In this document: positions 8,901 through 63,605 of the stretch, piece by piece
Numbering within the stretch: the first letter of the stretch is position 1
Layout of the letters: every line of letters begins with the position of its first letter
NCBI RefSeq assembly: GCF_907164915.1
Contig: NC_061868.1
Coordinates: 44,469,774-44,533,773, forward strand
Length of the DNA stretch: 64,000 bases
From: Impatiens glandulifera
Taxonomy: Eukaryota; Streptophyta; Magnoliopsida; Ericales; Balsaminaceae
Direction: 5' to 3'
Position numbers and translations under genes: made by a program
The notes under the pieces: generated by a model
The model's database searches: none
Told to the model about the DNA's origin: nothing
The model's input: the letters and a program-made list of their open reading frames with translations, nothing else

Positions 8901-11900
8901 TCTTTCTTTCCAGGTTGTTTTATTTGGTTTGCTACTTAACTTTGTAAATTTGTTTAAAGTCCATATAGTCACCTCTGCACTTTTTATATGTCAGTTCTGT
9001 TTTTGAGAATGATTTCATATGATTAGAATTTCTTCCATTCACAGGGTGCTGTTGAATCTGTATCTGTTGGTGAAATTAAACTCAGCTTTAGGCAATCACT
9101 GGTCAAACTTGACCCCAAACTACAAGTGTTGATAAGTGATTTGGAGGTAGTTATGAGATCTTCAACTAAAAGCTCTCTGAAAACCAGATCTCGAAGATCC
9201 CGTTCTTCAGGTTCAGGCAGAGGAAAGTGGATGGTTGTGGTTAATGTGGCAAGGTTTTTGTCCTTTTCTGTAACAGAATTGTTGGTGAAGGTAAACAATG
9301 CTTGGTGAAGTTTATAAAATTTGATGGTTCATTTTCTTCCATGTTATTATGTTAATACTTACTGGTTCTGATGTGTGCCCACTGATTGAATAATCTTGCA
9401 TTGCTTTGATGTAGGTTGATGGTATTATTCTGCATCTTTTTCTCATATGAGATTAGTTTTAGGGTTTGCTTCACATGAGTAAATTGTTCTAAACTTGTAT
9501 GTCTGGAGAGAACATGCATAGCTTGTTTTCATTTATTTCTCTTTCCTGTTGGACATGTCACAGGGAATTGTTTTACTTAGGTCCAACTCTTGTTTCTTTC
9601 ATGTAATTTTCCACTTATTTGGTTTATTAGGTCATCTGAGATCTGTCTTGAACAACAATTTTCAGATTCTCCATAAAGCCTGGAACTTTAGATAATTGAT
9701 GCATTTGGGCTTTAAGAAGGGTTTTATTAGCATTACCTTATAGAAATGCACATTGCTCATTGATCTGGACATATTGGTCTTACTCACACTTAAATATTTT
9801 TGAATATATTAGCTGATTAGCAGTTGATAGCTGTATATATTTTTTTTTGTCAAAACCTGCTGCAGACCTCCAAAGCTACTGTAGAAGTCAAAGAACTAGG
9901 GATTAACATATCCAAAGATGATGTCTCCCAGCAAGATTTGTCAGTTAAATTATTTATTCTGCCAATCATTATTCACTTGGGTGATCAACGTGTTAGTATT
10001 GACCAATCCTCCAGCTTTAAATATGAAGGATACATGTCCACCAGTCAGGCATCAGTCGTCCCAACTGGGAAGACCTTGTCTCCTTTCTTCTGTGAAGAAT
10101 TTTCATTGTCATGTGACTTTGGTCATAATAGGTATGTATTGTGCTTCCCTTTCTCTTATAACCTCATTTGGTAACTTGAGATATTATCTTTTACTCGGTA
10201 TGCAATTTACCTAGAAATTGTCAATTTCTCTAAAACTCAACTTGCTATTGTAGGAAAATCACGTCTAAGTTACTTTTATATGGTTTTTGTGTAATAAAGT
10301 GAACTTCCAAATATACCTTAATTCATATAAGCTTGTTAAGGAATACATTATAAGATAAAGGATGACCTGATCACGATTATCAAAGATGCTAAAGTATATC
10401 CCGGATAAATTAGAAATATTAGGATTATTCTATTATTTAATGTAAAAGATAATTATCATTTTAATCTTTATCTATAAGTTAAAAGATAATTATCCTAGAA
10501 GTAATTATCCCATTATTCTATGAAAGGGTTTCTATCCTAGAATTGTCGTGTATTGTGTATTTAAGAGCATGACCCATGAATAAAATTCATCACAAAACAC
10601 TATTACTTCTTCAAACGAAATTAGTAATAATGTAAACTAAGAGATTCTGTGTATCCTTCCACATTTTGATTCTTGTAACAATATATTTATGACATTGTCC
10701 GTGAAAGAATATGAATTACATTTGAATATTCTCCAAATTCATATTCAAGGTATCAAAGCCATTATTAGGGTTCATGGTACATACATTTGAAATTCAATTG
10801 ATCAATGAATGACCCAAGATATGTCAAACTGCATTGCCAGTATGAAGATGTAAAATCTGGACACCAAATCAACATTGTGGATCATCTCTCTGATTCCAGA
10901 TACTGAAACTCACTCAACTGTTGGTAGAATTTTGCAACACATTTATGGTCTTGATTAATGATTGACCCAAGATATGTCAAACTGCATTACCAGAATGAAG
11001 ATGTAAAATCCGGACACCAAATAAACATTGCGGATCATCTCTCTAATTCCAGATACTGAAACTCACTCAACTGTGGGTAGAATTTTGCAACACATTAAGG
11101 TCTTGATTAGTCTCTCTGATAGATATTAGATTACAATCTAGGTACTAAACAAGAAGGAAAAATGAAACATCAAAATCCTTAGTTACTTTTGCAGATCCTA
11201 TTTCCAAGAACTTAGATGTGGAACCATCAACAATGCAAACGGAAGAGTTAGTTGATTTTCTCGAGAATTTCTCTCATTTGTGAGATGATATCTTCTTCTT
11301 TTTTTGCATAAGTAAATAAATTAAAACAGCATCAAAACAATTTACGAGTTAGCATAAATAAATGTTAAAATTTGAACTAAATAACCCCAACTGAGAGGAC
11401 TATGTAATGGGAAGCTTGCATTTAAAAAAGATACGAGTTAGCATAAGGTAGTTATTTTTATTTAAGCTTGTGCTCAGATACTTGAAGAATTTGAGAAAAT
11501 GATTCAAAAAAACTGTGTTTGAAACTCAATATGGTTATTGATTTGTGCCAAAAGCATCAACCTCCAGTTGGAGCATCTACGGGGTGTTTTAACAATGTGG
11601 CCAGATTATCTTGTTGAAAATGGTGCTAACTGCTAACTAATCCGAGTAGTTAGAATTTTGATGTTTTCTCAGCAAGGGTTAGAACATGGAAGACACATTC
11701 TTTTATTGAATAATATTTTTCATCTTTGTATAGTAAAATAGAGTTAGGATTTCCATGTATTATCACTATTATTCCCCTGTTTTAGCAAAAAACAAATAAA
11801 TCTTTTGCATTTGATTAATATTATGTATTTGTCAAATTTCTTGGTTCTATGTTGACTTTCACATGTTTAAAGACATTGTTTTTGGAGATCTTGAAAATAG

Positions 11901-14900: not shown

Positions 14901-17900
14901 TAAATTTTCACTTTTTATGATATGAAATCATCAAATCTACTTAATATAACCATGGTCTTTTTATATTATGAAAGCTCCATCTTTTCCAAAAGGAGCTGAA
15001 TGTGGATAGCTTAAAGAGATTGATGAAGAGTGCAAACCAATTTGGCTACTTGATAGAATAAGAGCAACATTATCCTGCCAGTTTTAGTATATAAACACAA
15101 TAATTATGGTAGTGAGAAGTTGGAGGAAGGACATTGATGTGGATATTGAAACCTTTGGGATGTTGTATTGTAATCTGTAACAGTTCAATTTTAGGTTATA
15201 TTTGTTTTTGTGGAATTATCAAACTTTGCCCATTCCAATGCCTTTTTGCCTTTCCAAGGAAGTGGTTGGGAGATATTTCCAAAATATCTACCTAGGAAAA
15301 TATTTTCCCATTTTTTACTTCCATCTTATTTTTCCTATAAATATTAGCCTACTTTAAAAAATATATATATTAGCCTCCTTGGTAATAGTTGAAATCATTC
15401 AAAAAATATAAAATCCAATTTCTCTTCAAATTACTACAATTTTATATGTAGCTTAACTATCAATCAGAGCTGCATCAGCCTTTAAGGAAATCCAGGAGTC
15501 TTGAGGTGTGAAATCTTGAGCAATTACATATTTTTATATTTTCCTGACCTGCATTTGGTCTTCTGGTTCTCCAGACTAGACTTGTTGACATGCTGCCCAT
15601 CACTGGCATGGTTAACTACAACTAAAATGTGGGATAAATGCCATTTAATCTTGAATATCATGTTTTCATATCTCGCCAAATAGTATAAATGTGCAACTGC
15701 CTTTTGGTGTTGTGTGAATGATTCCTAAGTGCCTTCATATGTAGAGAAAGTATGGCTTGCATAAAATAATAAAGATAACAAAAGTATGTCCACTTATCAT
15801 CTTTATTGGATAGGGGTCTTATGTTTCTCTATTCTGATCATGGTTCCAGATCCACAACATATAATCCACAATATTAGCCTGTTCAAGCAGCAATTAGAGC
15901 TGTGATTATACTGAGTGAGTTTTGTGTTAACACATGTGATAGCTTTAATTTTTTTAATTTGAGAATCAAGCAGTATAGATAGTTTATATATTGCGAGTAA
16001 AAAATCAGCAACCAGTTGCAGCTACAGAATCTGGCCGAATCGGCTAATTATCTCTCTTGGGTTTTCTTTTGTTTTGATGATAATGTAAGTTCTCTTTGCT
16101 TTCTGATGCAGGGTTGCTTGCAATCATCCCACGTTTATGCTAATAATATATCAAGTACAGGTGTTTCAACGCACATGGAACTTGGTGAATTGAATTTACT
16201 CATGGCTGATGAATATCAAGAAAGCTTGTTTGGGGTGGAAACCAACAAAGGTTCCTTACTGCATATTGCAAAAATTGGCCTGGACTTGGGCAGAAAAGAT
16301 ATGGAATCAATTGAGGATGGTTCTAAAAGTAAATTGGTTCTTTCTGTTGATGTGACTGGTATGGGGGTTCACTTGACCTTTAAGCGTGTTGAATCTCTTG
16401 TTACTACGGGCTTATCCTTGAAGTCTCTACTGAAGGGACCTGCTTCAAGTAGAAAATCATCTCAGAATCCAGGAAAATCATTAAAACCATCAGGGAAGAA
16501 GGGGATTCAATTTATAAAATTTAATCTGGAAAGGTGCTCTGTCAACTATAATGGAAATATTGAACTGGATAATACAGTTATTTCTGATCCCAAACGAGTA
16601 AACTATGGTTCTCAAGGTGGTCGAGTCATAGTAAGTGTTTCAGCTGACGGGACACCACGTAATGCAACCATAATGCCCACAGTTCTAGATGGATGCAAGC
16701 ACTTAAAGTATACTACGTCTCTTGACATATTCCATTTCAGTTTCACTATGAACAAGGAGAAACAGTCCATGCAGACTGAGCTAGAAAGAGCCAAATTTAT
16801 CTATCAGGAATATTTGGAAGATAAGAAGCCCGGTACAAAAGTACAATTGTTTGATATGCAGAATGCGAAGCTTGTACGTCGATCTGGTGGCCTCAAAGAG
16901 GTTGCAATTTGCTCTCTTTTCAGTGCTACAGATATTTCGGTCAGGTGGGAGCCTGATATTCATATAGCTCTTTTCGAACTTATGCTGCAAATAAAGTTAC
17001 TCGTGCATCAACATAACGATCGGGAAACTGATAAAAAACTCGTGGATAATACCCTCATGAGTGGTTACAAGCAGGAAGTAGGTTTGAAGGAACCTGCACA
17101 AAATGAGAAACAACGAAAGAAAAGGGATTCTCTCTTTGCTATTGATATTGAAATGCTGAATATATCAGCCGCGGTTGGGGATGGGGTTGAAGCCACACTT
17201 CAGGTTCAATCAATATTTTCCGAGAATGCATCTATAGGAGTTCTCCTTGAAGGACTCATACTTGCTTTCAATGAAGCAAGGGTATTTAAGAGTAGTCGGA
17301 TGCAAATTTCCTGCATTCCAAATGTTACTGGAACTTCCAATTCAAAATCAGAGTCCGTCACTACAAAGGACTGGGTTATACAAGGACTAGATGTCCATAT
17401 TTGCATGCCGTACAGATTGCAGTTGCGTGCAATTGATGACTCCATTGAAGAAATGTTGAGAGCATTGAAGCTTGTTACTGCAGCTAAAACAAAGCTCCTT
17501 TTCCCTATTAAGAAAGAAAGTGCAAAACTTAAAAAAGCTAGTTCAACAAAATTCGGATCTGTTAGATTTTGCATCCGCAAGATATCTGCTGAGATAGAGG
17601 AAGAACCATTTCAGGGTTGGCTGGATGAACACTATCATCTGATGAAAATTGAAGCTTGTGAATCAGCTGTCAGATTGAAATTTCTGGATGACCTTCTCTC
17701 CAGAGTTGTTGAACCTCCTGAAACCTCAGAAGTAAATAATCCAATTCCTGAAGCTAAATTTGTTTACAAGGGGGAGGAAATTAACACTCATGATGTCTTA
17801 GCCCTTCAAAGAGTCCGAGAGGATATTTACAAGCAATCCTTCCAGTCCTATTACCGGGCATGTAAAAGTCTCATGCCATCAGAAGGTTCCGGTGCTTATA

Positions 17901-20900
17901 AGACAGGATTTCAGTCTGGCTTTAAGCCCAGCATTAACAGGAATTCTCTTCTTTCCATCTTGGCAACAGATTTAGATTTAACCTTGACAAAAATTGAAGG
18001 TGGTGATGCTGGGATGATAGAGGCTATACAGAAGCTTGATCCTGTCAGTAGAGAATGCAACATACCATTTTCACGACTTTATGGGAGTAACATTCTTCTG
18101 CGCGTAGGCACACTTGTTGTACAGCTGAGAAATTATGCAAACCCTCTTTTTTCTGGAACTTCTGGGACATGTGAAGGCCGTGTTGTGCTAGCTCAGCAGG
18201 TCAAACTACAAAATTGCTTTTTATTCTCCTTCTAACTAAGCTCCGTATTTCCAGTACTCTCCTTTCCAATATGTGCCTATCATCCTTATATCTTTTAAAA
18301 GTTAATGCTTGCATATATTCGAATTGTCGCGAAATGCGACTATATTACCATGCAAACATACCTATCATCCTTATTTGATCTATCCACATCATCTTCTTGG
18401 TGTGCAAGGGAATAGGGATACTTCTTTTGACTTTAAGAACATTATTGTTCAGAAATATTTAAATGAAGGGATATTAAGTGCATTTTACTCTCTACAGCCA
18501 TAGTAAAAGCTTTCTGACACAAAGAAGGTGATAAAAACATTACTCTGCTGAATGAATCATCTTACTTTTTGTATGTGAGCTTAAAAGCTTATGCAGACAA
18601 TGACCTATCTGCAGTCCTGTTGATTTGATGCAATCATGCAAACATATAGTGGTGTTAAGCATCACTTTCTTTCTTGAACTATTCAAACTGATGAAATATT
18701 AATCATCTCTCTCCATATGTAGATGAGCACTAAAAACTGTGATCTTCAAAGTTACCAGTACTAGTAGCTAAGGTTTCAGTTTCAATTTACTTTTAAGTGT
18801 TGTTCAGTTTCCAGTTCTAAACATCTGTCTGCCTGCTTTCTGGTTTACTATTTGGTGAGCTTAAACTCTATTACAATCACTCTAGTCAATGATCATAAAC
18901 ATTTTTAAAAAACTGCTTGAACTTTGGGACACAACCAGATGAAATTATTTCTTCTCGATCTTCCAAGCTTATACAGATAAACGGCTTTATTGTCGTTTAA
19001 TATCCAAGACTCAGTTAAGGTTGTCAGTATTGCGCCTTAATGATTTTCCTTTTGCATTAATTTATTCAAACTATTTGAGTTATTCCCTAGTCCATAATCC
19101 CTGTATGTTAGAAATGCCAACTAAATATGGATATCACCTTTCTTCCCAATTTTCTTGAACACTGTTTTACATGATATTTCACATATAATAAGATATATTG
19201 GTAAGTTAATCTATGAAATTGCATGATCTTCTGGTTACTCTTCATTATAACAGTCAATATTATCTCTTGTATGCGAAATTTCAACAATTGTTACTTTGTT
19301 GGGATTAATATCTCATCCTATATTATCTTATCAATAATCATCACTTCAGAACTGCTTACTTGCAGGCAACATGCTTCCAGCCCCAAATTCACCAGAATGT
19401 CTTCATTGGGAGGTGGAGAAAGGTCTTCATGCTTCGTTCAGCCAGTGGCACCACTCCGCCCATCAAAACATATTCAGATTTGCCCTTACATTTTCAGAAG
19501 GCAGAATTTTCATTTGGTGTGGGCTTTGAGCCTACTTTTGCTGATATCAGCTATGCTTTTACGGTAGCACTTCGCAGAGCAAATCTGAGCATAAGGAATC
19601 CGAATGCTCCAGATATTCAGCCACCAAAGAAAGAAAAAAGCCTGCCTTGGTGGGATGATATGAGGAGCTATATTCATGGGAATATTAGTATGTTTATGTC
19701 AGAGACAAGATGGAACATCCTTGCTACACCTGATCCATATGAAACACGTGACAAACTTGAACTTGTCGCTGACCATATGGAAATCAATCAGTCAGATGGT
19801 CGTATTTATGTTTCTTCAATGAACTTTAAGATTTTTGGGAGTAGTTTGGAGACTTTATTGAAGAACTCTAGCTTAAAGGTTCCAATTGGTGAGTTTGGTC
19901 CTATCTTGCAAGCTCCATCCTTTACACTTGAAGTGATAATGGGATGGGAGTGTGATTCTGGAACTCCGATGAATCATTATTTGTTTGCACTACCAAGTGA
20001 AGGCAAACCTCGCGAAAAAGTTCTTGATCCTTTTAGATCAACATCTCTGTCATTGCGGTGGGATTTCTCACTTAGACCGTCTTATTTGAAAGCCACCTCA
20101 GTTGGTGAAGAAGTTGTTCTTGATGCATCTAGGTCTAGTCCTGTGTCAAAATCTGATAATCTTGCACTTGATTCACCAATACTTTCAGTAGGTGCTCATG
20201 ATCTAGCGTGGCTAATAAAGTTCTGGAACATGAATTACCTTCCTCCTTACAAGTTGCGAACATTTTCTCGATGGCCTCGTTTTGGAATTCAGAGATTTGC
20301 CAGATCAGGCAATCTGTCATTGGATAAGGTGATGACTCAATTTATGTTCCGTATCGATTCAACTCCGTCTTGTATAAGACATATGCCCTTGGATGATGAA
20401 GATCCTGCTAAGGGGCTAAAGTTTAAGATGGCAAAACTGAAATATGAACTTTTCTACAGTCGAGGTAAGCAAAAGTTTACATTTGAATGTAAGCGTGATC
20501 CACTTGATCTTGTTTACCGCGGTCTTGATCTTCATACACCCAAGGCATATCTGGACAGAGAAGATTGCATGAGTGTTGCAAAAGTAATTCAAATGAGTAA
20601 GAGGAGGGCTTCAAAGTCTCCGTCAATGGACAGAGTTGGTAGTGATAAGCACAGCCCTGTAAATGGTGGTACAGAGAAGCACCGTGATGATGGATTTTTG
20701 TTGTCCTCGGATTATTTCACAATCAGACGGCAATCCCCCAAAGCAGACCCTGCAAGGTTACTAGCATGGCAAGAAGCTGGCAGAAGAAATACCGAAATGA
20801 CGTATGTCAGATCTGAGTTTGAAAATGGGAGTGACAGTGATGAACACACACAATCTGACCCTAGTGACGATGATGGCTATAATGTAGTAATAGCTGACAA

Positions 20901-23900
20901 TTGTCAGAGAATCTTTGTTTACGGCCTGAAGCTGCTATGGACAATTGAGAATAGAGATGCTGTTTGGTCTTGGGTTGGTGGGATATCCAAGGCATTTGAA
21001 GCTCCAAAGCCTTCCCCTTCTCGGCAGTATGCGCAGAGGAAGTTACTTGAGCACAACCATAACAGTCCTGAAAGATCTCAAGATGAGAGGTCAAAGTCAC
21101 CTTCAAGCCACCAAGATGCCGTTTCTCCTATTAAAACAGATTCAGAAATAGTTCCAGGTGATCATAAGAAAGAAAACTCATTGCCTTTTATAATTGGACC
21201 ACGAGTATATATTAGAGCATCCGTCTAGAAAAGGACCATCCTAATATGATCGTCTCATGTCTATTATGTCATAATAGAAACTTCCTAGCTTTAAAAAAAA
21301 TAGCAGAGGCACGCACAGCATTTGCATGTGCAAAATAGCATTAAAAGGTTGAGTGAATTATTGATTGATGAGCTATTGCTTTATTAAATAAATATGATAA
21401 GGAGTTAGTCATATAACTGAAAATGTTTTGGCTGATGAATGCATGCATGTATATGTAATTATGTACTGATATGACATAATAGGACTTTTAAGCAGTGTAA
21501 CGATTTATAATATTTCTATATTGTCATATTATCTAATCACTATAATTTATTTCCTTTCCAGTATACCTAATTTCTATTATGAGGATCTCAGGTAGTTACA
21601 TTTGTTGTTGTTTTATGATCAGCAAGGAATGGAAAGACTAATGTTCCTGAGGAAGAGGGAACTCGTCATTTCATGGTTAACATTATAGAACCCCAATTCA
21701 ACCTTCACTCAGAAGAAGCCAATGTAAGTTGTGGATAACAGAGAATGGTACTTGTGATGCCTTTCCGGCCTTCTTAAGTCAATAATGGATATATTGTGTG
21801 CCATATTCTTTTAAACTTTCCACAATTGTCCTGGTAAATTGCAGTTTCCTTGTTCTCTAAATGATCTTAAGCAGTTTGAATTTCCACAAGATATGGACTT
21901 ATGTTTAAAGCTATATCAAACATGGATTAAATATTTTTCATTCACTGGAACTACACACTGCTAGAAACATGTTGATCTCTAAGTCTACATTCTGAAGTTA
22001 AGTTGGTTAGTTACTAATACCATGCCTTCTGACTGTAATTCCTTTGGTATCAGACTTGCATCCGAACTTATTGATTTCTCTTAACAGATTCCCAATTCAA
22101 ATTTTTGTATGGATTGTCTTGAGATTAATATATTCCTTGCTTGGGTTGACTCAATTCCGTGTCGAGGAAGAATTTGAGAGGTCTGAGATCCTTGGTATCT
22201 AATTCTTCGATAATGAGCTTTTTCAATCTTGCGATTTCAATTTCATTTTAGCCGGTGATCAACGTATACAATCAAAATAATGAACTTCTTTTCCATGAGA
22301 TTTTCACAAACATAGTGCAATCAACTTGGCGCTTTGAGTATCAGTATTTGGTCACAGATGTGGTGAATTTTCCGAACCATGCTCTCGAAGATTGTTTGAC
22401 TCGTGCATAGATTTTAGAAGTCGGCCTACTTCACTAGGTTGAGTTGTAACTCCCGGTGGTATTTCCATATATATTTCTTCCATTCTCCATTAATAAAGAC
22501 GTGTATGACATCAAGTTGACGATGTTGTCGATCTCTATTTGCGGCCAAATGTAGAAGAATTTGCATGGTTAATATGTAATCTCATGCATTTGTTTCTTCT
22601 CTCCTAATAAAAATGGAGTTTCATGTCAGAGCAAGGAGTAATTTGGTACTATTTTGTTGCTAACTCCTGACAAATACTTCTATGTTGATGGATGACATTT
22701 TCTTGTAGGAGTTCTATTCTAAGACAATGTAGAAATCAATAACTTGTGTTACAACTGGACTATAGTGTAGAGTAGTTACAATGGATGTGGTAACTTCTAT
22801 TTGTTTCCATTTGGTACTTATGTTTTTATTTGGTCTCTTGTTTATCTACAGGGTAGATTTCTGCTTGCTGCTGTCAGTGGTCGTGTCTTGGCACGTTCAT
22901 TTCATTCTCATGTGGGATATGAATCAAATGAACAAGCACTTGGTACTGGAAATGTGCCAGAAAGTCAGCCTGAAATGGCGTGGAACCGAATGGAGTTCTC
23001 AGTTATGTTGGAGCATGTACAAGCTCATGTTGCTCCAACAGATGTTGACCCTGGGGCTGGACTACAGTGGCTCCCAAAAATCCGCAGGAGCTCCCCCAAA
23101 GTGAAACGGACAGGTGCTTTGCTGGAAAGAGTTTTCATGCCTTGTGATATGTACTTCCGTTATACAAGACATAAAAGGGGACCTACAGATGTTAAGGTTG
23201 GTGATGCTTGATTTAGTCATTGACTCATTGCTATTACCTCAACCAATTGATACATTCATCTTGGTCTTACCTTCGACTAGAAGTTTCTTCCTGTGATACT
23301 AAGGTTCTGAGGTTAAATTTATTCTTCTGCAGAGGAAACCGTTAAAAGAATTGACATTCAATTCTCGTAATATTACAGCAACAATGACGTCTCGTCAATT
23401 TCAAGTTATGCTAGATGTGCTGACAAATCTTCTCTTTGCTAGACTTCCCAAGTAAGTTGTGTTTCAGGATTTTTCTTAATTGTTTGCATCAATAACAGAT
23501 TTTAAGGGATTTTTCGATTCTGGTTAAGATAGTTGCATTGTTTTCTGGTATATGAACCATTAGTAATAGGAAATATTCTCAATTTTTAAGTAGAACTATC
23601 AGTGCTAGCTCCTTTTTTTTACCTTAACTTTGTTTTCGCCAACTTGCTCATTCTTTCCATTTTAACTCCTAACGCCCTGTATTTTTCAGCTCTTTTATTA
23701 TGATACATTTTAATTTCTTTTTGCTTTTTTACATGTACTTCTAAAAATATATATAGAAGAATTTCATAGCATCCTCTCTTTTCTCCAACAACCTGCCAAA
23801 TAATTTTGTACCATATTTTCTCCATTTTTCTAGTGGACCCCTTCCCTCTTTTTCCCCATTTCCATCTTCAAGAGCTTATTGCAAGCTCTAGAGAGAGATG

Positions 23901-35770: not shown

Positions 35771-38700
35771 TTACATTGCTGGTGAATTTGCCTGTTCATT
35801 TGGTTTGAGAGTGTTATCATGTATTATTCGCTTCGAAAGATCTCTCATGTATCCCTGCAATTTCAGATACAAGGAAAGTCAATATACAATAAAATTGTCT
35901 AAAGTGTAATTATTACACCAGCCTGATGTTCTAAGAAATTTTCATGAACAAACTACTATAGAACTATGGCCACATTTGGAAACTTCTGGTTTTTTATATG
36001 AATCGAGATTCAGATGAGAAGCCCCTATAAATCTACGTCTATACGAGATATTTGAGAAGAAAAAAAATGTGTTTCCAACTGTGCCCTATGCCTTCCCACA
36101 GTTCCATCACGATAACAATATTGTAGTTTTCAGCAAGAAAGAACTAGTCGTGTCAGCAGCCAACATAATGGATTTTGTCATGAGAAATTTTCTTGAGGAA
36201 ACACAAAAATAGCAAGTCTCTCATTTGGTAAGGTGGGATATTACAAGGCTTATTGATGGTGGGCTCGGGATAAAGGACCTCTCCCTCTTCAACACATCCC
36301 TCATTTGCAGATGGTGGTGGAGATTTACTCAAGATAACAGGAGCCTTTGGAATAATGCCATCATCACCATACGGATTCCTTACAAGGAAGTGTGGAAATC
36401 TAAAATCCATATTCTTTGCCAGGGAGGAAATCTATGGGGCATTCAGACATCTATGAAGCTTAAAAATACGGTTTCACCTAGCCAGTAGGTGTTGCATTTG
36501 CATGAAGAGTGAAGAAACGATTGAACATACCCCTCCTCCACTGTGATATGGCCAGGGATATGTGGTCCCTCCTGCAGACTATCCTCAATTTTCACTAGGG
36601 CATGCAGTTCAAAGTTAACGATTTTTGGGATCAATGAATTTGAAGTTCATCTCTCTCATCATGTGGCGGACAATTTAGAAAGAAAATAATAACAAAATAT
36701 TTCAAGGTTCGGCATTGAAATAATCAAGGGCTTTCTTCTTCACGCACTCATTTGCTTTCCCATTCGGAAGGACTTGAATGGGATAAGAATTTTTTATCTT
36801 TAATAGAATGTAACTTATTGTTTTTTCTGTATTTGTGTCTTGCTTTCCCCACCCCCTATATGCTATCGCGTTCTTTGTTTTTAATAAAACCTTTTCCAAC
36901 AAAAATATATCCTTATGTTATGCTACGGGAATATGAGATTAGAGAAAAAAAAAACGGCAATGAATTTCATAATGAAGAGTAATGCATTTCATACGGAAAA
37001 CACTAATTAGGGAATATTAGTGAATCTGTGAATCTCTAACTATCATAATGGATCATACCAAATATTTTTATCTAGTGAAGGAAAGAAATTAGGAAATAAG
37101 GGAAACATATAATTTTCCTATAGCTAGGGATAGTATCCCCTAGAATGATTGTCCACACTCCTCTCAAGCTACACGGGTATATGTTTTCCATAATCCACGA
37201 GGGGCAATGAGTTGATGAGTGTGAAATAACGGTTTATGAGACACCTGTGAGAGAAATGTGCATGTGAAGCCCTCCACAAGTGACTACGCAGCATTGGCAA
37301 AGAAATCAGATGACTCTCAGATTGTAATCTAATGCTTATTACCATTTAGAAATTTGAGATTTCAAGAGACAGAGAGAGATTAGGGAAAAACATATTTGTT
37401 TACTTTTATTATTTTTGAATGAATTACGTAATGAAAATTTTCCTTAAAATAGACAAACAAAACACTAAGGAACTGGTTAAGGAAGGAATGGATATAATGC
37501 TATGTTTGGATGTGTATAATTGGAATTGGAATTGGAATTATAATTATAATTCCAATTTTATAAGAATTGGACAGAGAGAGATTAGAGAAAAACATATCTA
37601 CTTTTATTATTTTTGAATGAATTATATTGAAAATATGCCTTAAAATAGGCACACAAAATACTAATTAAAGGACTAGTTAAGGAAGAATTGGATATAATGT
37701 TATGTTTGGATGTGTACATTAGAATTAGAATTGCAATTTTATAAGAACTGCAATTTTATAAGAATTGCAATCAGTACAATTCAATTCTTATGTTTGAAGA
37801 AATGTTAAAATTACAATTCCGAAGGAAATGATGGGATTGAAGCTTAAAAAAAACACCCAATTCTAACTCCGCCAAAATCAAACATAGCCTTAGGGAACTT
37901 CAAATACTTTAATTGATCATACTAAATATTCTATCTATTTAAGAAATGGAATTAAGAAAAAAGGATAAATATAATTTTCTTATAATTGAGGATAAATATA
38001 ATTTTCTTGTAATTGAGGATAAAATTGACCCTAGATTGATATTCCACACATGCTTTATGCATATACTAAGCTCTAAAGTAGAAGGGAAAATGAGTTGCTA
38101 ACAAATTAACCCATACCTTGCTTGCCCAAAAGAGTCCGCATGCATTACAAAGCGTCCTAGGACCATCTGGTCCCCTTCGCATCATAGGAGTGGACTTAGA
38201 ACTTGTGCCACAGTGAGAGCATCTGAGAAATATAAGATACAGCAAATAGAATGAAAAATATTTCCACTTAAAAAATTGCTTCATTTTGGTGGTGAAATAT
38301 GTTAAGAAACATTCATTGTGGAGGCGAAATGAAATATTACAATAAAACAAGAACAGATACTTAATATACTGACATAACTGTCAGCAACTACCAAACAGAA
38401 CTCTAAAAAGGAGAAGAAACTGACAAATTTTCAGATGGTTTATCATCTTGTCCAGACTCTTCAGCACTATTGGAGCTACCAGATACTTTAGCCTTCTTCG
38501 AAGAAGAGAACTGTCCCTTCTTCCTTTCCATCCTGGGTCATGGGAAATCACAGAATTGAGAAACTAAGCACAGTACTTAAACAAACAAAAATGATGAAAC
38601 TTAAACCCTCCAAAATGCATGCATATTAATAAGTATGAGGTTATACAATTTGCAGGTGTTTCCTCCAAAATACTAGATAATCTGCCCTATCATACATAGG

Positions 38701-56471: not shown

Positions 56472-59400
56472 TCAAACAAGTTCACTTGCAATATCATCTG
56501 TGCAGTTATCCTCATGCAAATGAGGCGTAAGACGTAATCTTTTGGCTTCAGGTTTGATGCTAATAAATTCCAACAACGCTTCTCCACCAGCACTAATTTC
56601 GCTATGTTCCACCATTGAATCATCGGCAGTCCTTTTGGATGGTAGAGTTGAATTCTCCCCATCTTGCAACTTGTTCATTTCCTGAACCGGGATGATAGTT
56701 GAATTCTCCCCATCTTGCAACTTGTTCATTTCCTGAACCGGGATGATAGTTGAATTCTCCCCATCTTGCAACTTGTTCATTTCCTGAACCGGGATGATAG
56801 TTGAATTCTCCCCATCTTGCAACTTGTTCATTTCCTGAACCGGGATGATAGTTGAATTCTCCCCATCTTGCAACTTATTCATTTCCTGAACCGGGATGAT
56901 AGTTGAATTCTCCCCATCTTGCAACTTGTTCATTTCCTGAACCGGGATGATAGTTGAATTCTCCCCATCTTGCAACTTATTCATTTCCTGAACCGGGATG
57001 ATAGTTGAATTCTCCCCATCTTGCAACTTATTCATTTCCTGAACCGGGATGATAGTACTGTTGTTGTTCTCAACGGGATCCACTGTAATTAATTCAAACA
57101 TCGGCTCATATACATTTGTTTTGTGGGCTAACTTCTCGTTCGAACCCAAATAAGCAGAATGGTCTAAGTTATATAGTGATTCTTCTGCTGTTGTTGTACT
57201 TCCATTGGCAGTTTGGTTTCCATCTGGTTCTAATATAGAATAATCATCAAAAGTGGATTTTCCAACCCCATAAGACCATCCAAATGGGTCATTTGAGAAA
57301 GAGGTGAAACAACCAACAACATTATTATTACCTATTTGTTCCCCATAATTAGGAGCCGCAATTTGTAATGTATCATTGGGAATGGTGGAGTGATTTGATG
57401 AATTTGGTTTATCAATTTGCTCTAATGCCAAACTATGACTCTCAGCCTGGACCAATAAGTCATTAGAGTCCAACTGTCTTGAAGGGAAGGACAAGAAGCA
57501 TGGCTCTTCTGGGAGAACCATAGATAACTTAACGTCGTTTCCATTTAATGATGTACAGAAAAAATGTTCATTGGCTCCAACATCTGGCTGCTAGGAAAAA
57601 AAACATGCAAAGGAATAGTTATAATTTATCTAGGGAATATCCAAGATCTGTAACTTCTCTTTTAAGGAAAAAAACGAAAGAAAATTGTTGTTGAAAAAAT
57701 ACCCTTTTTGATAAAAAAAAGTTTGATTATTTGAGGTTATTTAGGTCAAATGATTCAAATATCTTTTGTATTAAATTTTTTAAAATGTTATAAAAAATAG
57801 TAAGGATATTTTAGTCTATGATCTGAATGATTTAATTGATGATGAAATAAGGGAGTTAAATCCAAATAACCCTTCATCAAACAAAGTCCAATTCATGTAT
57901 AATGGAAAGGTATTAAGCATATTGGGAAGCAGCAATTGGAGTTACAACACTCCGACCGTGACTGAACTTAGATTTTCTATATCATATCAGAAAAAATATA
58001 GATAGTGAATGCAGTCAGTGTTCTCTTGTGTTAGTAGAGAATTAGGTTTAAACAGTGAAAATTAGAGAACTACATTTGTGAGTATTCAATTGAATCTTTT
58101 AAGCTATTCTAAAATTTGGTGAGCAGTTTTATCTGAAGTAACATCCATACATAAAATACCCGGACCATGAAATAAATGAGATCGCCCCATTTTGAAACAC
58201 TTGTTGTTTTTGTATATGGATCCGTATTGTGTCTCGGACTAAATTTAGTTTCCAATTTTTTCTGTATATGGAAACGTATCCAGATACACAAACAAAAACA
58301 ATAAGTGTTTTCAAATGGGGATTCAATCTCACACAAGTCAGCTATGCTAGCAGAGTATTCAGTATTCACCTAATGTTCATTAGATAAAGTGCAGGACTAT
58401 ATTCATTCGTAGGAGTTGAAAATACCTCATTTATTTGAACAGGGCTAATAAACCCACCAGTGGATGCTTCTTGGTCAAAAATTGGAGAGTTACCCTTAAC
58501 ATATGATGTTGTGGCATTTTCTGTCACAAGAAGCTCCCTTAGAACAAGACCTGAATCACCAATACCACACTGGGTCGTCCTCTCTGGTAATAAAGTGATC
58601 TCGATCCCCAGATCTTTAGGACAACTTGACACGTTCCCCTGGCAGTTCAACTCTAAGGGAAATGCATCACCATTTGTAGATCCATTATTAGTTTCAGAGG
58701 TTTCCACCTTAAGCATGTCATGAATAAGACGCTGGATTGAACCACGCTTAAGAGAAGCCTCAACTGGAGGAAACCAGTCCATATTTAGCTGAAAAGATGA
58801 TAGTATGATGTGAAACATAAGAACAATCTAACATACAAAGCGCCAAAAAGTTATTCATTATCACAGATAACCAACAATAAAATATCAAGATAGAGAGTAT
58901 CAATCAAATGGCAAGTGATTAAAAATAACTAAATAAATGTTTTTTTTCTGACTACAACGAGAATATCAGAGCTAAATTAGGCAGGAATCAATAACTCCCT
59001 CACATATATATTTTTTTTCATGTGCATTTTTTATTGTTGGACTCTACACAATATGGCTGCCACTTTATTGCTTTTTGAATCAAATGAACTAACTTTTGAG
59101 TAAACTGACTACAATGCCCTTCCCTTATACTGTGATATTTTTTTCTCCATCACCAGAAGTACCTAGGATGAATTTTGGGCCTTGTTTGATCTTGAGTCAT
59201 TTTGAGTTATTTTAGGGTTTTATAAATTCTCTCTATCACATCACTATCTTTCTAATCATCAAATCACTTAATTTATCAATAAAAATATCAAAAGACTTTT
59301 ACTCTACTTTTATTAAATTTAAATACAAAAGGACATTTTAATAATTTATCTTACACAAATCAAATAACCCATTTTTTTATCAAACAAGGTTTTTTTGGAT

Positions 59401-62400
59401 AAAATCCAAGATCAAACGAGCTCCTAGGGTTATTATTTGAATAACCAAATGGTTATTTCCAAATAACTTTGCTTGATGTAGGTTATTGAAAATCAAGTTA
59501 TTTAGGTAAAAAGACATTAGTGGTATAAATATATAATGAAGAAATAACTTTAAAAAAGAAAAGAATATATGTTATTTTGATTGATGATTTGAATGATGTA
59601 ATTGTCAAGTACATAGTTGATTAGATAGTAAATTATTTGAAGTTAATCTCAAATAACCCACATCAAACAAGGCCTTGGGTGTCTAATAAATACCTAAAGT
59701 TGACAAAAAAAAAAGACCATATCAAGAAAGAGATAACTCAATACTAGCTGAGATGTATGATTCACTTACAAAGTTGGAAAGTTTTGTTATTCTGAAAGGG
59801 TTAAAGCTATCAGGAGCATCATCCACAAAGCACTCAGCATAATGCAGCAAGAACAACCCACAATCAAATGAATTTTGCTGCTGTGGTACCTACATATCAC
59901 AAAATAAGACATCTAAGTCATCAGATAAGAGAAAGAAAGTTTGCAATCCAACTTCAACCATTCAAGGACATCGATAAAATAATTGCTAAAATATTTGCTT
60001 GTTTTCATACTAATGGTAGTATGATTTTGTAGTTGTCATTACTACTTTTATAATCAAATAGATGTGACAAGTGAAATGTTCAGTCATTTATTCTTTTTTA
60101 TGGCCGGTAGATACACTTGTGTTTTATTTTTAACTAGAGAACCAGGAATAAGATTATTTGCATGTCTAACATATATCAATTGCATTTATAGAACACTTCT
60201 AAGATAACTTGTTAACCTAAAATGAAATGCAATGCCAGCCAAACAAATCTCAGCCACATACCAAAAGTATGGTTTCAGTTATGAATCACAAGAGAAAAGT
60301 CGTACTTAAATATGTTCATTCGTCTCTAGTTACTCTCCTACTTTATGGAGTATGTGCATATGTGCGATCATAAAATTGAACTAACACTTCTTTTGAACAT
60401 ATGCATGTGAGAGCTTTATGTCAAATTAAAACCAGAATCAGTAGCAAATCAAGCATTTTATTTGCTTCCAAATAGGTTAAATGTATCGCTCAGTCCAACA
60501 TATCAAAAATCTGGAACATTTCATATGTTCATTTTGCAGAGATTTAGTGGTGTTGAAGTGTGGACGGGGAGGGATCTTTGCTTTTAAGCCCATCAATATA
60601 GTTTTTTTCCTAGGACTTCTGAACTAACTAGTTCCTCTCAGGGAAGAAAGAAAGCATGTCCTCATTATCTATAGTAATAGTAGTAGACATAGTCCACCCT
60701 AAAACCACCAATTGGAAGGAAAATTGTAAGCCCTTATAGAGCAAACACATCAAAATACCTCTTCATTTAATATAATAGTATAGGTTGTATAAAATAATTA
60801 CATTGCTTGCAGATACTCAACTGTCGAGACCTATATTGACGTCTCCTAACTTTTCTTTCCAAAGAAAATATGCATCAGTTAGATACAAAAAACTTTAGCA
60901 TCTAGTCATCACATCTGAAGATTGAATTGACCTAAAATGAAACTATTGTCAAATCATAAGAGAATAAAAGCTGCAATACTGATCTTAAAGAACATGGCCT
61001 AGATCAAAATGAAGTCAATACAGTAGTTGACACAACTTTTAACGCAAGATGTATCCTATTTGAAAGCTGTTGGTTTCCACTAAAACCGGTTTGTTGTAGA
61101 TATGGATGTATACAAGTATTTAAGTTGAACATCACACCAGTTGATTACTATAGATGTTTTCATATGCAAAAATAAAATAAAAGCATTAGAAGAAGCAATT
61201 TGCCAAATAATGGTAGTTTTACACAAGAAGCACTTGAAGAGATAATAGGATAAAATAAACTTATGTCACCAAAGTGTTAGCCAAAGGGATGTATCTTCTA
61301 TTGTGTCCAAAGAAGAGCAAACCAAGTAAAACGTATCAAGTTCAGGTAACATTTATGCCTGAGTATTAGGTTGCATCACAAACTAAAAGAAAAATGAGCA
61401 ATTATGTTAGCATGTCTACTAACCTCAAGTGGGACAAATCTCAAATTCAAGAATTTACTAGAAATGTCCTCAGATGATTCCTTTTGTCTCTCTTTCCATT
61501 CCTCCCACAGATAACTACAACCAAGAATCAAAAAAGCCAAGTTGTGGCATTGCCATTACATAACAGAAAAGGGAAAATATACATCATTGTTGGCTCCTAC
61601 AGATTACCGGAAACATATAAAAGCAATAAAACATGTCATCTTTAAATAGAAGATGTAATTAATATATAGGAGGCTAAGGAAGAAATTTCCAACAAATATC
61701 GTTTCCAAAAATCAAAAATAAAAGAGAGAGAGAGTTGAATAATTAAGACTTTCCCTTAATTGAGTTTCCTTGGCAATTGAACACCTTGTATAGAAAATCT
61801 CCTAATTATGAAAGTCTATTTAGTTCACATTTATAGTTTTAAAGTAAACGAAAAAAGTTATAGCTTGGGATTAAGAAAATGTTTTTCATACATAAAGTGT
61901 ATCAGATGGGAATTCAATGATGAATTCATGGTTTGATACCAATCGACATGAAGCATGGTGTGAAGTTCATCATCATCTATGGAACAGTATAAAAAAGTTT
62001 CTCTAATATGGTTTTGTTCAACTGTCAATACTCTAACTTGCCAGCTGTATTCCCACTAAACTCGAAGGAAAAAATCTGATTAGATCTACTCTATGGCAGA
62101 AGAACAATGAGAAGTGTTCAAAAAGAGAGTGCATAATATAGTTCCGCTATCAGGTCTATTCTCAATGAGACAATTATAACATCAACTTCATATCCTTCCT
62201 TTTCCGAAATTTGTAGTTTTTCATGTAGCATACTCAATTGGAGGATAAGAAGGGAAATTAAATAAGGTCAATTCATTAATATTCTATTCTGCAAAATTTC
62301 TAGATACTAGTCCCACAATGTTGGACCAAAAAGGGAGCTTAGAAGGATAAATGTAGGGAGAAAAAAAGACTTGCAGCAGAAAGGCGCACCTTTGAACAAT

Positions 62401-63605
62401 GTTTTTTAGCCCATTATGAGTTCCTTTCATTGAATCCATATGCAATATGCATGGTAGTCTTTGACAGTTTTCGGCATCTTTTTCTGAAACACAAGGAAAA
62501 CAACAATGTGACTACAAATTTTCCATGGAAATAAATAAGAGATTTTTCACGCTGCAATGAGAACTTGCCTTGAGACTTAACCACATCACCAGGATGACAA
62601 ATAATAATTAAGCTCCAGTGGTAACTAAGAACAAAAACATGTGAAAAAACAAGTAATTGTTAATTCTAAGAACATAATAATAAATTATTCCACAGTTACT
62701 TTAACCAATTTCTCACCTGAAGTTTATGGGAATAAAGATATAATCCTTCTCAAAAATATTCACTTTTCTAGTCCATTTGCGAACACGCTGAAATGCAGCA
62801 GCACTTTTAAAAGCACTGGCTGGATCCTTGTCTAGGTCAATCAACTTTCGGAAGAAGAAACTATTGAAAAAGTGGAACCTATGTCTCTGTCCAGGTTGGA
62901 TCTTATTCTTCACATACCTAACATCAATCAACATGAGAAATGAAGAATTAATTCACATTCAGATCTCACAAAACAAAAGTGGTGTATTCACATATAACTG
63001 CTGAAACAGAAAGCACAGCTAAAGTTAGATAAATCCAATAAAGTCCAACTTACAGTGAGATTATGCAAATGGGAAGAGAGAAGAGAAGTTTTTTAGTTGA
63101 AGAAAAAGTAAATAATATAACCAATCTTACTCAACTGACAATAAGTTAAAAGAAACCTTCCAGGAAATGCATTACCAATTAGTTAAAAGAAACCATCCAG
63201 GAAATAAATGCATTACCAATTAGTTATGCAATCAAGAGTTACTTTTTTCTCCAGGACAAGAAAACTATGTGCCATATGGATAAACATGAAAAAAGCTACG
63301 TACTTGATATAGAAGTCAATGATTGTATCATTTACAAATATATCTGGTTGTAGAAGATCAAAATCTCTCTTACTAACAGAAACAGCATCAGGTTCTCCCT
63401 TTGGATAAATAACTTCTTGAAACGGAGAGTCAAAACTGCGACATAGCCAGAGCATACCATAAGTAGAAGAATGATGCACGGAAACAGCAAAGGACAACAC
63501 TGAATATCTTTAACAGAACAGAAATTTGTGTTTGCTTACCTAGGAAAATAATTCTTCTTAGGATCATATGCAAAACTTCCACCTATTAATGGCTCTCCAT
63601 CATTT
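56472..63605 (-). CDS. ULP2-type SUMO protease (SPF/ULP2-like), C-terminal part; 5' end outside the window
   Basis: Exons seen: complement(join(56472..57590,58426..58788,59770..59889,61424..61514,62390..62483,62569..62624,62717..62917,63304..63435,63540..63605)); in phase, N-terminal exons not found. C48-family cysteine proteases remove SUMO, and ULP2 types prefer SUMO chains; they act in the nucleus. Active site: His in YHWSL (62618-62620), Asp in LHMDSMKG (62434-62436), Cys in NSFDCGLF (59860-59862), with the oxyanion Gln six residues before it in PQQQNSFDC. Also typical are DLLQPDIFVNDTIIDFYIK and FHFFNSFFFRKL. After the catalytic domain comes a ~500-residue tail, probably disordered. Its last exon holds eight 17-residue repeats (56647-57054) and a basic KRTADD segment. 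The 62484-62568 intron uses a GC donor. The closest known relatives are Arabidopsis SPF1/SPF2 (ULP2-like); which paralogue is unclear. Confidence 0.9.
56647..57054 (-). repeat. Coding minisatellite: 8 x 51 bp, 17-residue repeats in the SUMO protease tail
   Basis: Eight tandem 51-bp units encode NSTIIPVQEMNKLQDGE eight times without interruption, followed by a partial unit (NST) leading into LPSKRTADD. Units differ only at one synonymous site, the N codon of MNK (AAC or AAT). In plus-strand order the base is G,G,G,G,A,G,A,A, the first at 56673. There are no spacers. Confidence 0.98.
57690..57895. mobile_element. MITE-like repeat, SUMO protease intron
   Basis: The ends TTTGATTATTTGAGGTTATTT and the reverse complement of AAATAACCCTTCATCAAACAAA are imperfect inverted repeats. 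The same end sequence (TCAAACAAGG, GGGTTATTTG) recurs at 59175-59680. Confidence 0.5.
59175..59680. mobile_element. Composite Tourist-like MITEs, SUMO protease intron
   Basis: GGCCTTGTTTGAT at the left end (59177) is matched by ATCAAACAAGGCC at the right end (~59675), with TTG flanking both. Internal copies of the same end (ATCAAACAAGG at ~59382, GATCAAACGAG at ~59411, GCTTGATG at ~59472) indicate two adjacent or nested copies. Confidence 0.55.
59890..61423. other. Long intron of the SUMO protease
   Basis: A 1.5-kb intron separates the catalytic Cys exon from the exon encoding YLWEEWKERQKESS. I see no gene, RNA or clear repeat in it. Confidence 0.6.

What the first reader, a model, noticed from the sequence alone, without database searches (positions are those of the whole stretch)
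56647..57054. Poly-SIM array: eight identical IIPV-containing repeats in a SUMO protease tail
Seen directly: eight uninterrupted 17-residue units, each with S-T-I-I-P-V-Q-E, the next unit preceded by the acidic LQDGE. Established: SUMO-interacting motifs are short hydrophobic cores of the form [VIL][VIL]x[VIL], often with acidic residues or Ser/Thr beside them, and ULP2-class proteases act on poly-SUMO chains. Inference: IIPV fits this pattern, so the tail could give high-avidity binding to SUMO chains, spaced every 17 residues and encoded by an expandable minisatellite. I know of no description of such an array in a plant ULP2-like enzyme.
Basis: partly seen in the sequence, partly recalled or inferred. 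Interest (0 to 1): 0.82.

Follow-up and report, generated by a model that had tools for sequence, protein, structure and literature searches.

The report
Repeat-expanded tail of plant SUMO protease
In Himalayan balsam a SUMO-removing enzyme carries eight copies of the same 17-residue stretch in its floppy tail; the copies resemble SUMO-binding motifs, but related plants expand other repeats in the same tail, so the resemblance is probably accidental.

Summary
The array is real: eight 51-bp units (minus strand, 56658-57065) in the last exon of Impatiens glandulifera ULP2B, a SUMO protease; my splice matches the annotated 1051-aa protein bar one residue. Apart from the edge of copy 1 the copies differ at one synonymous site, so they are one recent event. 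IIPV fits the loose SIM pattern. But 11-18% of random 17-residue tandem units fit it too; 3 of 24 orthologous segments do in register; over 17 repeat-bearing lineages strict cores are no commoner than in shuffled units (2 against 3.5); and within arrays hydrophobic positions are no better kept than polar ones. The better generalisation: the disordered C-terminal tail of eudicot ULP2B is a hot spot of tandem-repeat expansion, 39 of 132 distinct tails against 2 of 127 N-terminal regions. The conserved tail elements, GIE[IM]TLL and a C-terminal K-R motif, lie outside the array. Best reading: recent in-frame minisatellite growth in a repeat-tolerant acidic linker, with an incidental, possibly weakly active, SIM-like core. 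SUMO binding is untested and not excluded.

The parts
56658..57065 (-). Tandem array, eight 51-bp units encoding (N/E)NSTIIPVQEMNKLQDG; IIPV is the SIM-like core
56646..56657 (-). Start of a ninth, truncated unit (ENST)
56472..57590 (-). Last exon of ULP2B: tail, array, C-terminus and stop
58426..58788 (-). Penultimate exon: region just after the C48 domain and start of the tail
58588..58608 (-). GIEITLL, the most conserved tail motif and a better SIM candidate by conservation
   Evidence: coordinates; pattern in 84 of 97 distinct tails; both L invariant in 52 rows
58531..58551 (-). GLVLREL conserved tail motif
56523..56549 (-). EAKRLRLTP, conserved C-terminal basic motif (K1029 invariant, R1032 at least 90%)
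59770..59889 (-). Exon with the catalytic Cys region (FDCGLF at 59851-59868)
61424..61514 (-). Catalytic-domain exon
62390..62483 (-). Exon with the catalytic Asp region (MDSMKG at 62422-62439)
62569..62624 (-). Exon with the catalytic His region (YHWSLI at 62606-62623); GC donor
62717..62917 (-). Catalytic-domain exon
63304..63435 (-). Exon at the start of the catalytic domain
63540..63605 (-). First exon that I modelled; P0001 has 306 residues before it, which I did not map

Best explanation
The array is a recent, lineage-specific, in-frame minisatellite expansion in the intrinsically disordered, acidic C-terminal tail of a ULP2B SUMO protease. A 51-bp stretch was copied by replication slippage or unequal exchange (inferred); because 51 is a multiple of 3 and the tail tolerates length change, eight copies persist. 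The tail connects the catalytic domain and the conserved GIEITLL motif to a conserved C-terminal basic motif, and this linker is a repeat-expansion hot spot across eudicots. Its likely role is a flexible, net-negative tether of variable length that helps place the catalytic domain on nuclear SUMO conjugates; each unit adds 17 residues and two net negative charges. The IIPV core arose in the unit that happened to be copied and may give weak, avidity-dependent SUMO contact as a by-product. Shown: array, gene identity, near-identity of copies, hot spot, position, chance level of the core. Inferred: recency, disorder (prediction), tether role, any SUMO contact.
For: Near-identical copies with one synonymous variable site in copies 2-8. 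Tandem repeats in 39 of 132 distinct C-tails against 2 of 127 N-terminal regions of similar mean length (365 and 347 aa); with at least 3 copies 20 against 0 (140 of 151 proteins anchored). On a tree of 39 catalytic domains (of 53 chosen) the repeat state needs 11 changes, gains or losses, at least 8 forced by well-supported branches, and unit sequences and lengths differ widely. AlphaFold2 with a 52-row alignment gives pLDDT below 50 for 596-990 and 992-1051. The strict SIM-like core occurs in 11-18% of random 17-residue tandem units. Unit charge: 1 basic, 3 acidic.
Against: No measurement shows that the tail is a tether or that the array is inert. A 17-aa unit in Phaseolus (TPTIPLQQVSHVAVDED) may derive from the same tail segment and has a related I-P-[VL]-Q core, which could mean shared selection. 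Fagus, Camellia and Apiaceae units fit a SIM pattern if Met is allowed. The sample of orthologues is uneven and counts close relatives more than once.
Confidence: 0.68

Rival explanations
1. Poly-SIM array: each IIPV binds the SIM groove of one SUMO in a chain, and eight copies at 17-residue spacing give avidity that recruits the protease to poly-SUMO.
For: IIPV has three of four aliphatic core residues, Ser/Thr before it and acids on both sides, as the loose SIM definition asks (PMC12751080, passages; its section on repeated SIMs read in full). Yeast Ulp2 has a SIM in its C-terminal part that targets hyper-sumoylated substrates (PMC6892545, passages; PMC12505158, passages); [quoted passage not shown] RNF4 shows avidity from weak SIMs (PMC3901395, passages). 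The region is predicted disordered with an alignment.
Against: Chance level of the core; 3 of 24 orthologous segments match in register; no enrichment over 17 lineages, 2 observed against 3.5 in shuffles, or 5 against 5.2 with Met allowed; hydrophobic positions not better conserved within arrays, 0.871 against 0.868 for polar; Pro inside the core is expected to disfavour beta-strand addition (inference).
Confidence: 0.2
2. The array folds into a beta-solenoid with one strand per unit.
For: AlphaFold2 on the last exon alone gives eight strands over the array, with pLDDT of about 51-79 in blocks of ten residues, mostly 67-79; a sub-threshold Pfam match to a beta-flower family overlaps the array (32.3 bits, cut-off 38).
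Against: The solenoid disappears with a 52-row alignment (how many rows cover the array was not counted). AF2 is reported to give confident unrealistic solenoids for perfect repeats (PMC11795689, abstract read).
Confidence: 0.03
3. Copy number is an assembly or annotation artefact.
For: Copies are nearly identical, which can confuse assembly; P0001 probably comes from the same assembly, so it is no independent check.
Against: The whole array is only about 410 bp, well within a long read (the sequencing method was not looked up); it is in frame; arrays of other units occur in other species' proteins at the same place.
Confidence: 0.04

Closest known systems
Arabidopsis SPF1/SPF2 (ULP2-like, class III SPF-type) SUMO proteases
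   Same: Catalytic domain in the centre with N- and C-terminal extensions (PMC6117582, passages; classes from PMC6117577, passages). The window gene is annotated ULP2B and the Arabidopsis-genus proteins P0096 (A. halleri) and P0112 (A. suecica) are among its hits. That ULP2B corresponds to the SPF type is recalled.
   Different: The last 120 residues of P0096 and P0112 do not show this unit; A. thaliana itself was not examined.
Yeast Ulp2 C-terminal domain
   Same: Long tail after the catalytic domain; there it holds a SIM and targeting motifs (PMC6892545 and PMC12505158, passages).
   Different: Its SIM was tested by mutation there and, in the passages seen, is not described as a tandem array; nothing was tested for the plant array.
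RNF4 SIM domain
   Same: Several SIM-type cores close together, read as avidity-driven chain binding (PMC3901395, passages).
   Different: RNF4 SIMs differ in sequence (IELV, VDLT, VDLT, VVIV in that paper), contain no Pro, and bind SUMO measurably; the array consists of near-identical copies and is untested.
Tandem repeats in ULP2B tails of Fagaceae, Camellia, Phaseoleae, Rosaceae, Malvaceae and others
   Same: Same protein and the tail region upstream of the C-terminal K-R motif.
   Different: Unit sequences and lengths (9-45 aa) differ, and 15 of the 17 lineage units examined lack a strict SIM core with an acid nearby.

Membership tests
ULP2-type SUMO protease (Peptidase_C48) | C48 catalytic domain with His-Asp-Cys triad | tested here: met
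   Pfam PF02902 E=7.8e-36; H441, D474 and C529 invariant in 52 rows
ULP2-type SUMO protease (Peptidase_C48) | Closer to SENP6/7 class than to SENP1/Ulp1 class | tested here: met
   By PDB sequence search: SENP7 E=6.8e-34, best SENP1 E=6.3e-20; no tree of the classes was made; annotated ULP2B
ULP2-type SUMO protease (Peptidase_C48) | SUMO-chain cleavage | not testable with these tools
   Needs enzyme assay
SUMO-interacting motif | Four-residue core with at least three Val/Ile/Leu-type residues | tested here: met
   IIPV in all 8 units; definition PMC12751080 passages
SUMO-interacting motif | Acidic or phosphorylatable residues beside the core | tested here: met
   DGENST before the core in copies 2-8, VENNNST before copy 1, QE after it
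SUMO-interacting motif | Located in a disordered region | tested here: inconclusive
   Disordered with alignment, artefact-prone solenoid without
SUMO-interacting motif | Core kept in orthologues (supporting, not strictly defining) | tested here: not met
   3 of 24 segments in register, 5 of 24 in any register of the first nine residues; placement of the segment itself weak, P=0.58 against shuffled tails
SUMO-interacting motif | Binds the SIM groove of SUMO | not testable with these tools
   Needs ITC, NMR or pull-down
Coding minisatellite | Head-to-tail near-identical units, period a multiple of 3, open frame | tested here: met
Coding minisatellite | Copy number varies among individuals | not testable with these tools
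   One assembly only; copy number does differ among related species in Phaseoleae (by eye)
Beta-solenoid / beta-flower | Stable fold prediction and Pfam score above cut-off | tested here: not met

The most novel reading that the evidence does not exclude
The C-terminal linker of eudicot ULP2B is an evolvable valency and length module: independent minisatellite bursts repeatedly rebuild it, and in some lineages (IIPV in Impatiens, VQ[MV]I in Fagus, ML[SD]V-type in Camellia) the burst creates a true poly-SIM array that shifts the enzyme towards long SUMO chains.
Probability: 0.15. Interest if true: 0.75.

Novelty: new member of a known kind. Interest (0 to 1): 0.4.

Why it matters
A single array looked like a designed SUMO-chain reader; comparison shows instead a recurrent repeat hot spot in one tail of one enzyme. 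That gives a natural series of tails (different units, lengths, with and without SIM-like cores) on the same kind of catalytic domain, a ready experiment on whether tail length, charge or SIM content sets SUMO-chain preference in plants. It also points to GIE[IM]TLL, rather than the array, as the first motif to mutate. On whether this is in print: searches for repeats in plant ULP2 tails gave 0 papers or 1 unrelated paper, and searches for plant ULP2 papers listed 20 and 8, of which I saw passages of PMC6117582, PMC6117577 and PMC6759571. The library holds open-licence papers only, and GIE[IM]TLL itself was not searched for.

Tried and rejected
Second protein search with the tail only (P0001, 590-1051): found only P0001; only the 7987 candidates sharing most words were scored. 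No other Balsaminaceae protein appeared there or among the 120 listed of 947 hits, so the array could not be followed within the family. 'IIPV' with 'SUMO' in papers: 0 papers. The genome search on the window's own assembly: five identical requests, none answered, so the unit was not searched elsewhere in the genome. Homology of the Impatiens unit to the segment ENPTIPLHQ...: three MAFFT modes put PVQEMNKLQDGENST beside it, with a gap after STII, and a position matrix ranks the unit first of 321 windows, but its score is not above shuffled tails (P=0.58); kept as tentative. In one search the neighbouring register gave 2 of 24 matches and any register within nine residues 5 of 24; the register used in the text gave 3 of 24. 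The leave-one-out control covered 16 of the 24 segments and recovered 14. Two of the 24 (P0002, P0011) have repeats of other units in the tail. The tree used 39 of 53 chosen proteins; 14, mostly legumes, were dropped by my anchor patterns, and its repeat label used the score cut-off without shuffles. The C- against N-region count (29 of 98 against 2 of 90; 101 of 151 proteins anchored) was repeated with looser anchors (140 of 151). Beta-solenoid reading rejected. PMC12177298 (passages) concerns another SUMO protease, FUG1, and gene silencing by repeat expansions; not relevant. A paper search for Impatiens glandulifera with SUMO brought nothing of use (8 listed).

The 17 lineage units were chosen by me: for Cornus half of its 32-residue period, and for Acacia and Arachis by eye (Arachis as an approximate consensus). 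The 24 segments were picked by eye and, for P0011.

Full report
What is there. On the minus strand the window holds the 3' part of a ULP2-type SUMO protease gene. Nine exons were spliced by hand and the product matches P0001, annotated 'probable ubiquitin-like-specific protease 2B isoform X2 [Impatiens glandulifera]', 1051 aa, listed at 100% identity, with one extra Q in my splice. Pfam finds Peptidase_C48 and, in the full protein, PH_ULP; SENP7 is the best PDB match. The last exon (57590-56472) holds eight 51-bp units, 57065-56658, encoding (N/E)NSTIIPVQEMNKLQDG, plus a truncated ninth. Copies 2-8 differ only by AAT/AAC at one codon; the first copy also differs at six of its first nine bases. 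The eight cores are therefore most simply one ancestral core copied, and should not be counted as eight observations.

Is the core more than chance? With the strict pattern [VIL][VIL]x[VIL] or [VIL]x[VIL][VIL], 17.7% of shuffled units, 13.3% of random 17-mers from orthologue tails and 10.9% of those from the last 150 residues carry it when read as tandem units (20000 draws each); with Met allowed 38.7%, 18.7% and 16.5%. Among 17 repeat-bearing lineages that I chose, 2 units (Impatiens, Nyssa) have a strict core with an acid nearby against 3.5 in shuffles; allowing Met, 5 against 5.2. Strict matches over whole tails average 3.26 against 3.65 in shuffles (105 distinct tails). Across ten arrays, mean conservation among copies is 0.902 for acidic, 0.871 for hydrophobic, 0.868 for polar and 0.773 for basic positions (two of the ten, P0014 and P0048, slip register, and ten arrays are not ten lineages). 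Nothing here points to selection for hydrophobic cores.

What orthologues have. In 24 orthologues a comparable segment lies upstream of the C-terminal K-R motif (e.g. ETPTIPLQQVSDAVDY in Clitoria, NGLPGLPHEDCDTQEN in Davidia). At the position of IIPV, 3 of 24 fit the strict pattern (P0030 VGLL, P0129 LIPL, P0145 IVAL). The link of the Impatiens unit to this segment is tentative. In Phaseoleae the segment itself has been tandemly multiplied, also at 17 residues (TPTIPLQQVSHVAVDED, 5.6 copies in Phaseolus), and by eye it is single in other legumes such as Canavalia, Clitoria, Abrus, Cajanus and Trifolium. This parallel is the strongest hint that the segment matters, and it is equally explained by a repeat-prone stretch.

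The hot spot. Tandem repeats beyond shuffled controls occur in 39 of 132 distinct C-terminal tails and in 2 of 127 N-terminal regions of the same proteins, of similar mean length (365 and 347 aa); with three or more copies 20 and 0 (an earlier, stricter anchoring gave 29 of 98 and 2 of 90; the first look gave 35 of 110 tails). The sample is the 120 listed of 947 hits to the Impatiens protein plus 31 further hits of a search with a legume tail, so it is not even over plants, and close relatives (Malus, Glycine) are counted more than once. A tree of 39 catalytic domains needs 11 gains or losses of the repeat state, at least 8 forced by well-supported branches. Periods run from 9 to 45 residues and the repeats end a median of 72 residues from the C-terminus, range 10-212. 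Units include SQDHDKVHDGN-like in Rosaceae, DNVQMIADDHIEET in Fagus and TLVSAASEMLSVADSQPPDHMLDSK in Camellia.

What is conserved. In 52 aligned orthologues the tail columns that stay are G620, I621, E622 (at least 90%), L625, L626 (invariant), G639 and V641 (at least 90%), K1029 (invariant) and R1032 (at least 90%); F663 is also at least 90%. That is GIE[IM]TLL, SGLVLRE and the C-terminal K-R-x-R. The pattern [GR]IE[IMLV][TKNM]LL is found in 84 of 97 distinct tails, taken from 105 of 120 proteins. It lies in a stretch predicted as disordered, about 65 residues after the C48 domain, so it is a natural candidate for a SIM in the part of the protein where yeast Ulp2 has one; this is inference. 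Yeast Ulp2's tail SIM targets hyper-sumoylated kinetochore proteins (PMC6892545, passages), and loss of the tail goes with SUMO-chain build-up (PMC12505158, passages). [quoted passage not shown]

Structure. Folded alone, the last exon gives eight strands over the array with pLDDT mostly 67-79, mean of the whole 41.3; with a 52-row alignment the full-length model shows no helix or strand after residue 592. AF2 is reported to produce confident unrealistic solenoids from perfect repeats (PMC11795689, abstract read). I treat the tail as disordered.

Verdict. The functional reading is not supported by comparison: the core is at chance level, mostly absent from orthologues, and sits in a linker that many eudicots fill with other repeats. 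A by-product affinity for SUMO remains possible: eight weak sites at 17-residue spacing could act by avidity as in RNF4 (PMC3901395, passages). That needs a binding experiment.

Noticed in passing
57588-57593: Tandem acceptor (tag|cag|cca) at the last exon: my splice reads INEQPDV while the annotated isoform X2 reads INEPDV, a NAGNAG-type alternative.
   Followed up: partly
62567-62568: The exon 62624-62569 ends in a GC donor (AAG|gcaagt); the junction agrees with the annotated protein.
   Followed up: partly
58588-58608: GIEITLL, a deeply conserved short hydrophobic motif in the disordered tail of ULP2B; candidate SIM; not searched for in papers.
   Followed up: partly
16001-21228: Plus-strand open frames of a Hobbit/FMP27 family gene (Pfam PF10344, E=3.3e-186 and 2.8e-171).
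   Followed up: partly
10798-11109 and 37368-37767: Two further long tandem duplications (153 bp x 2.0 and 198 bp x 2.0), not examined.
   Followed up: no
P0094 (Shorea) and P0137 (Arachis) tails: Other odd repeats: PSEQSQGLP-like, about 7.6 copies, in Shorea, and a degenerate VTCDDGQM-like series in Arachis.
   Followed up: no
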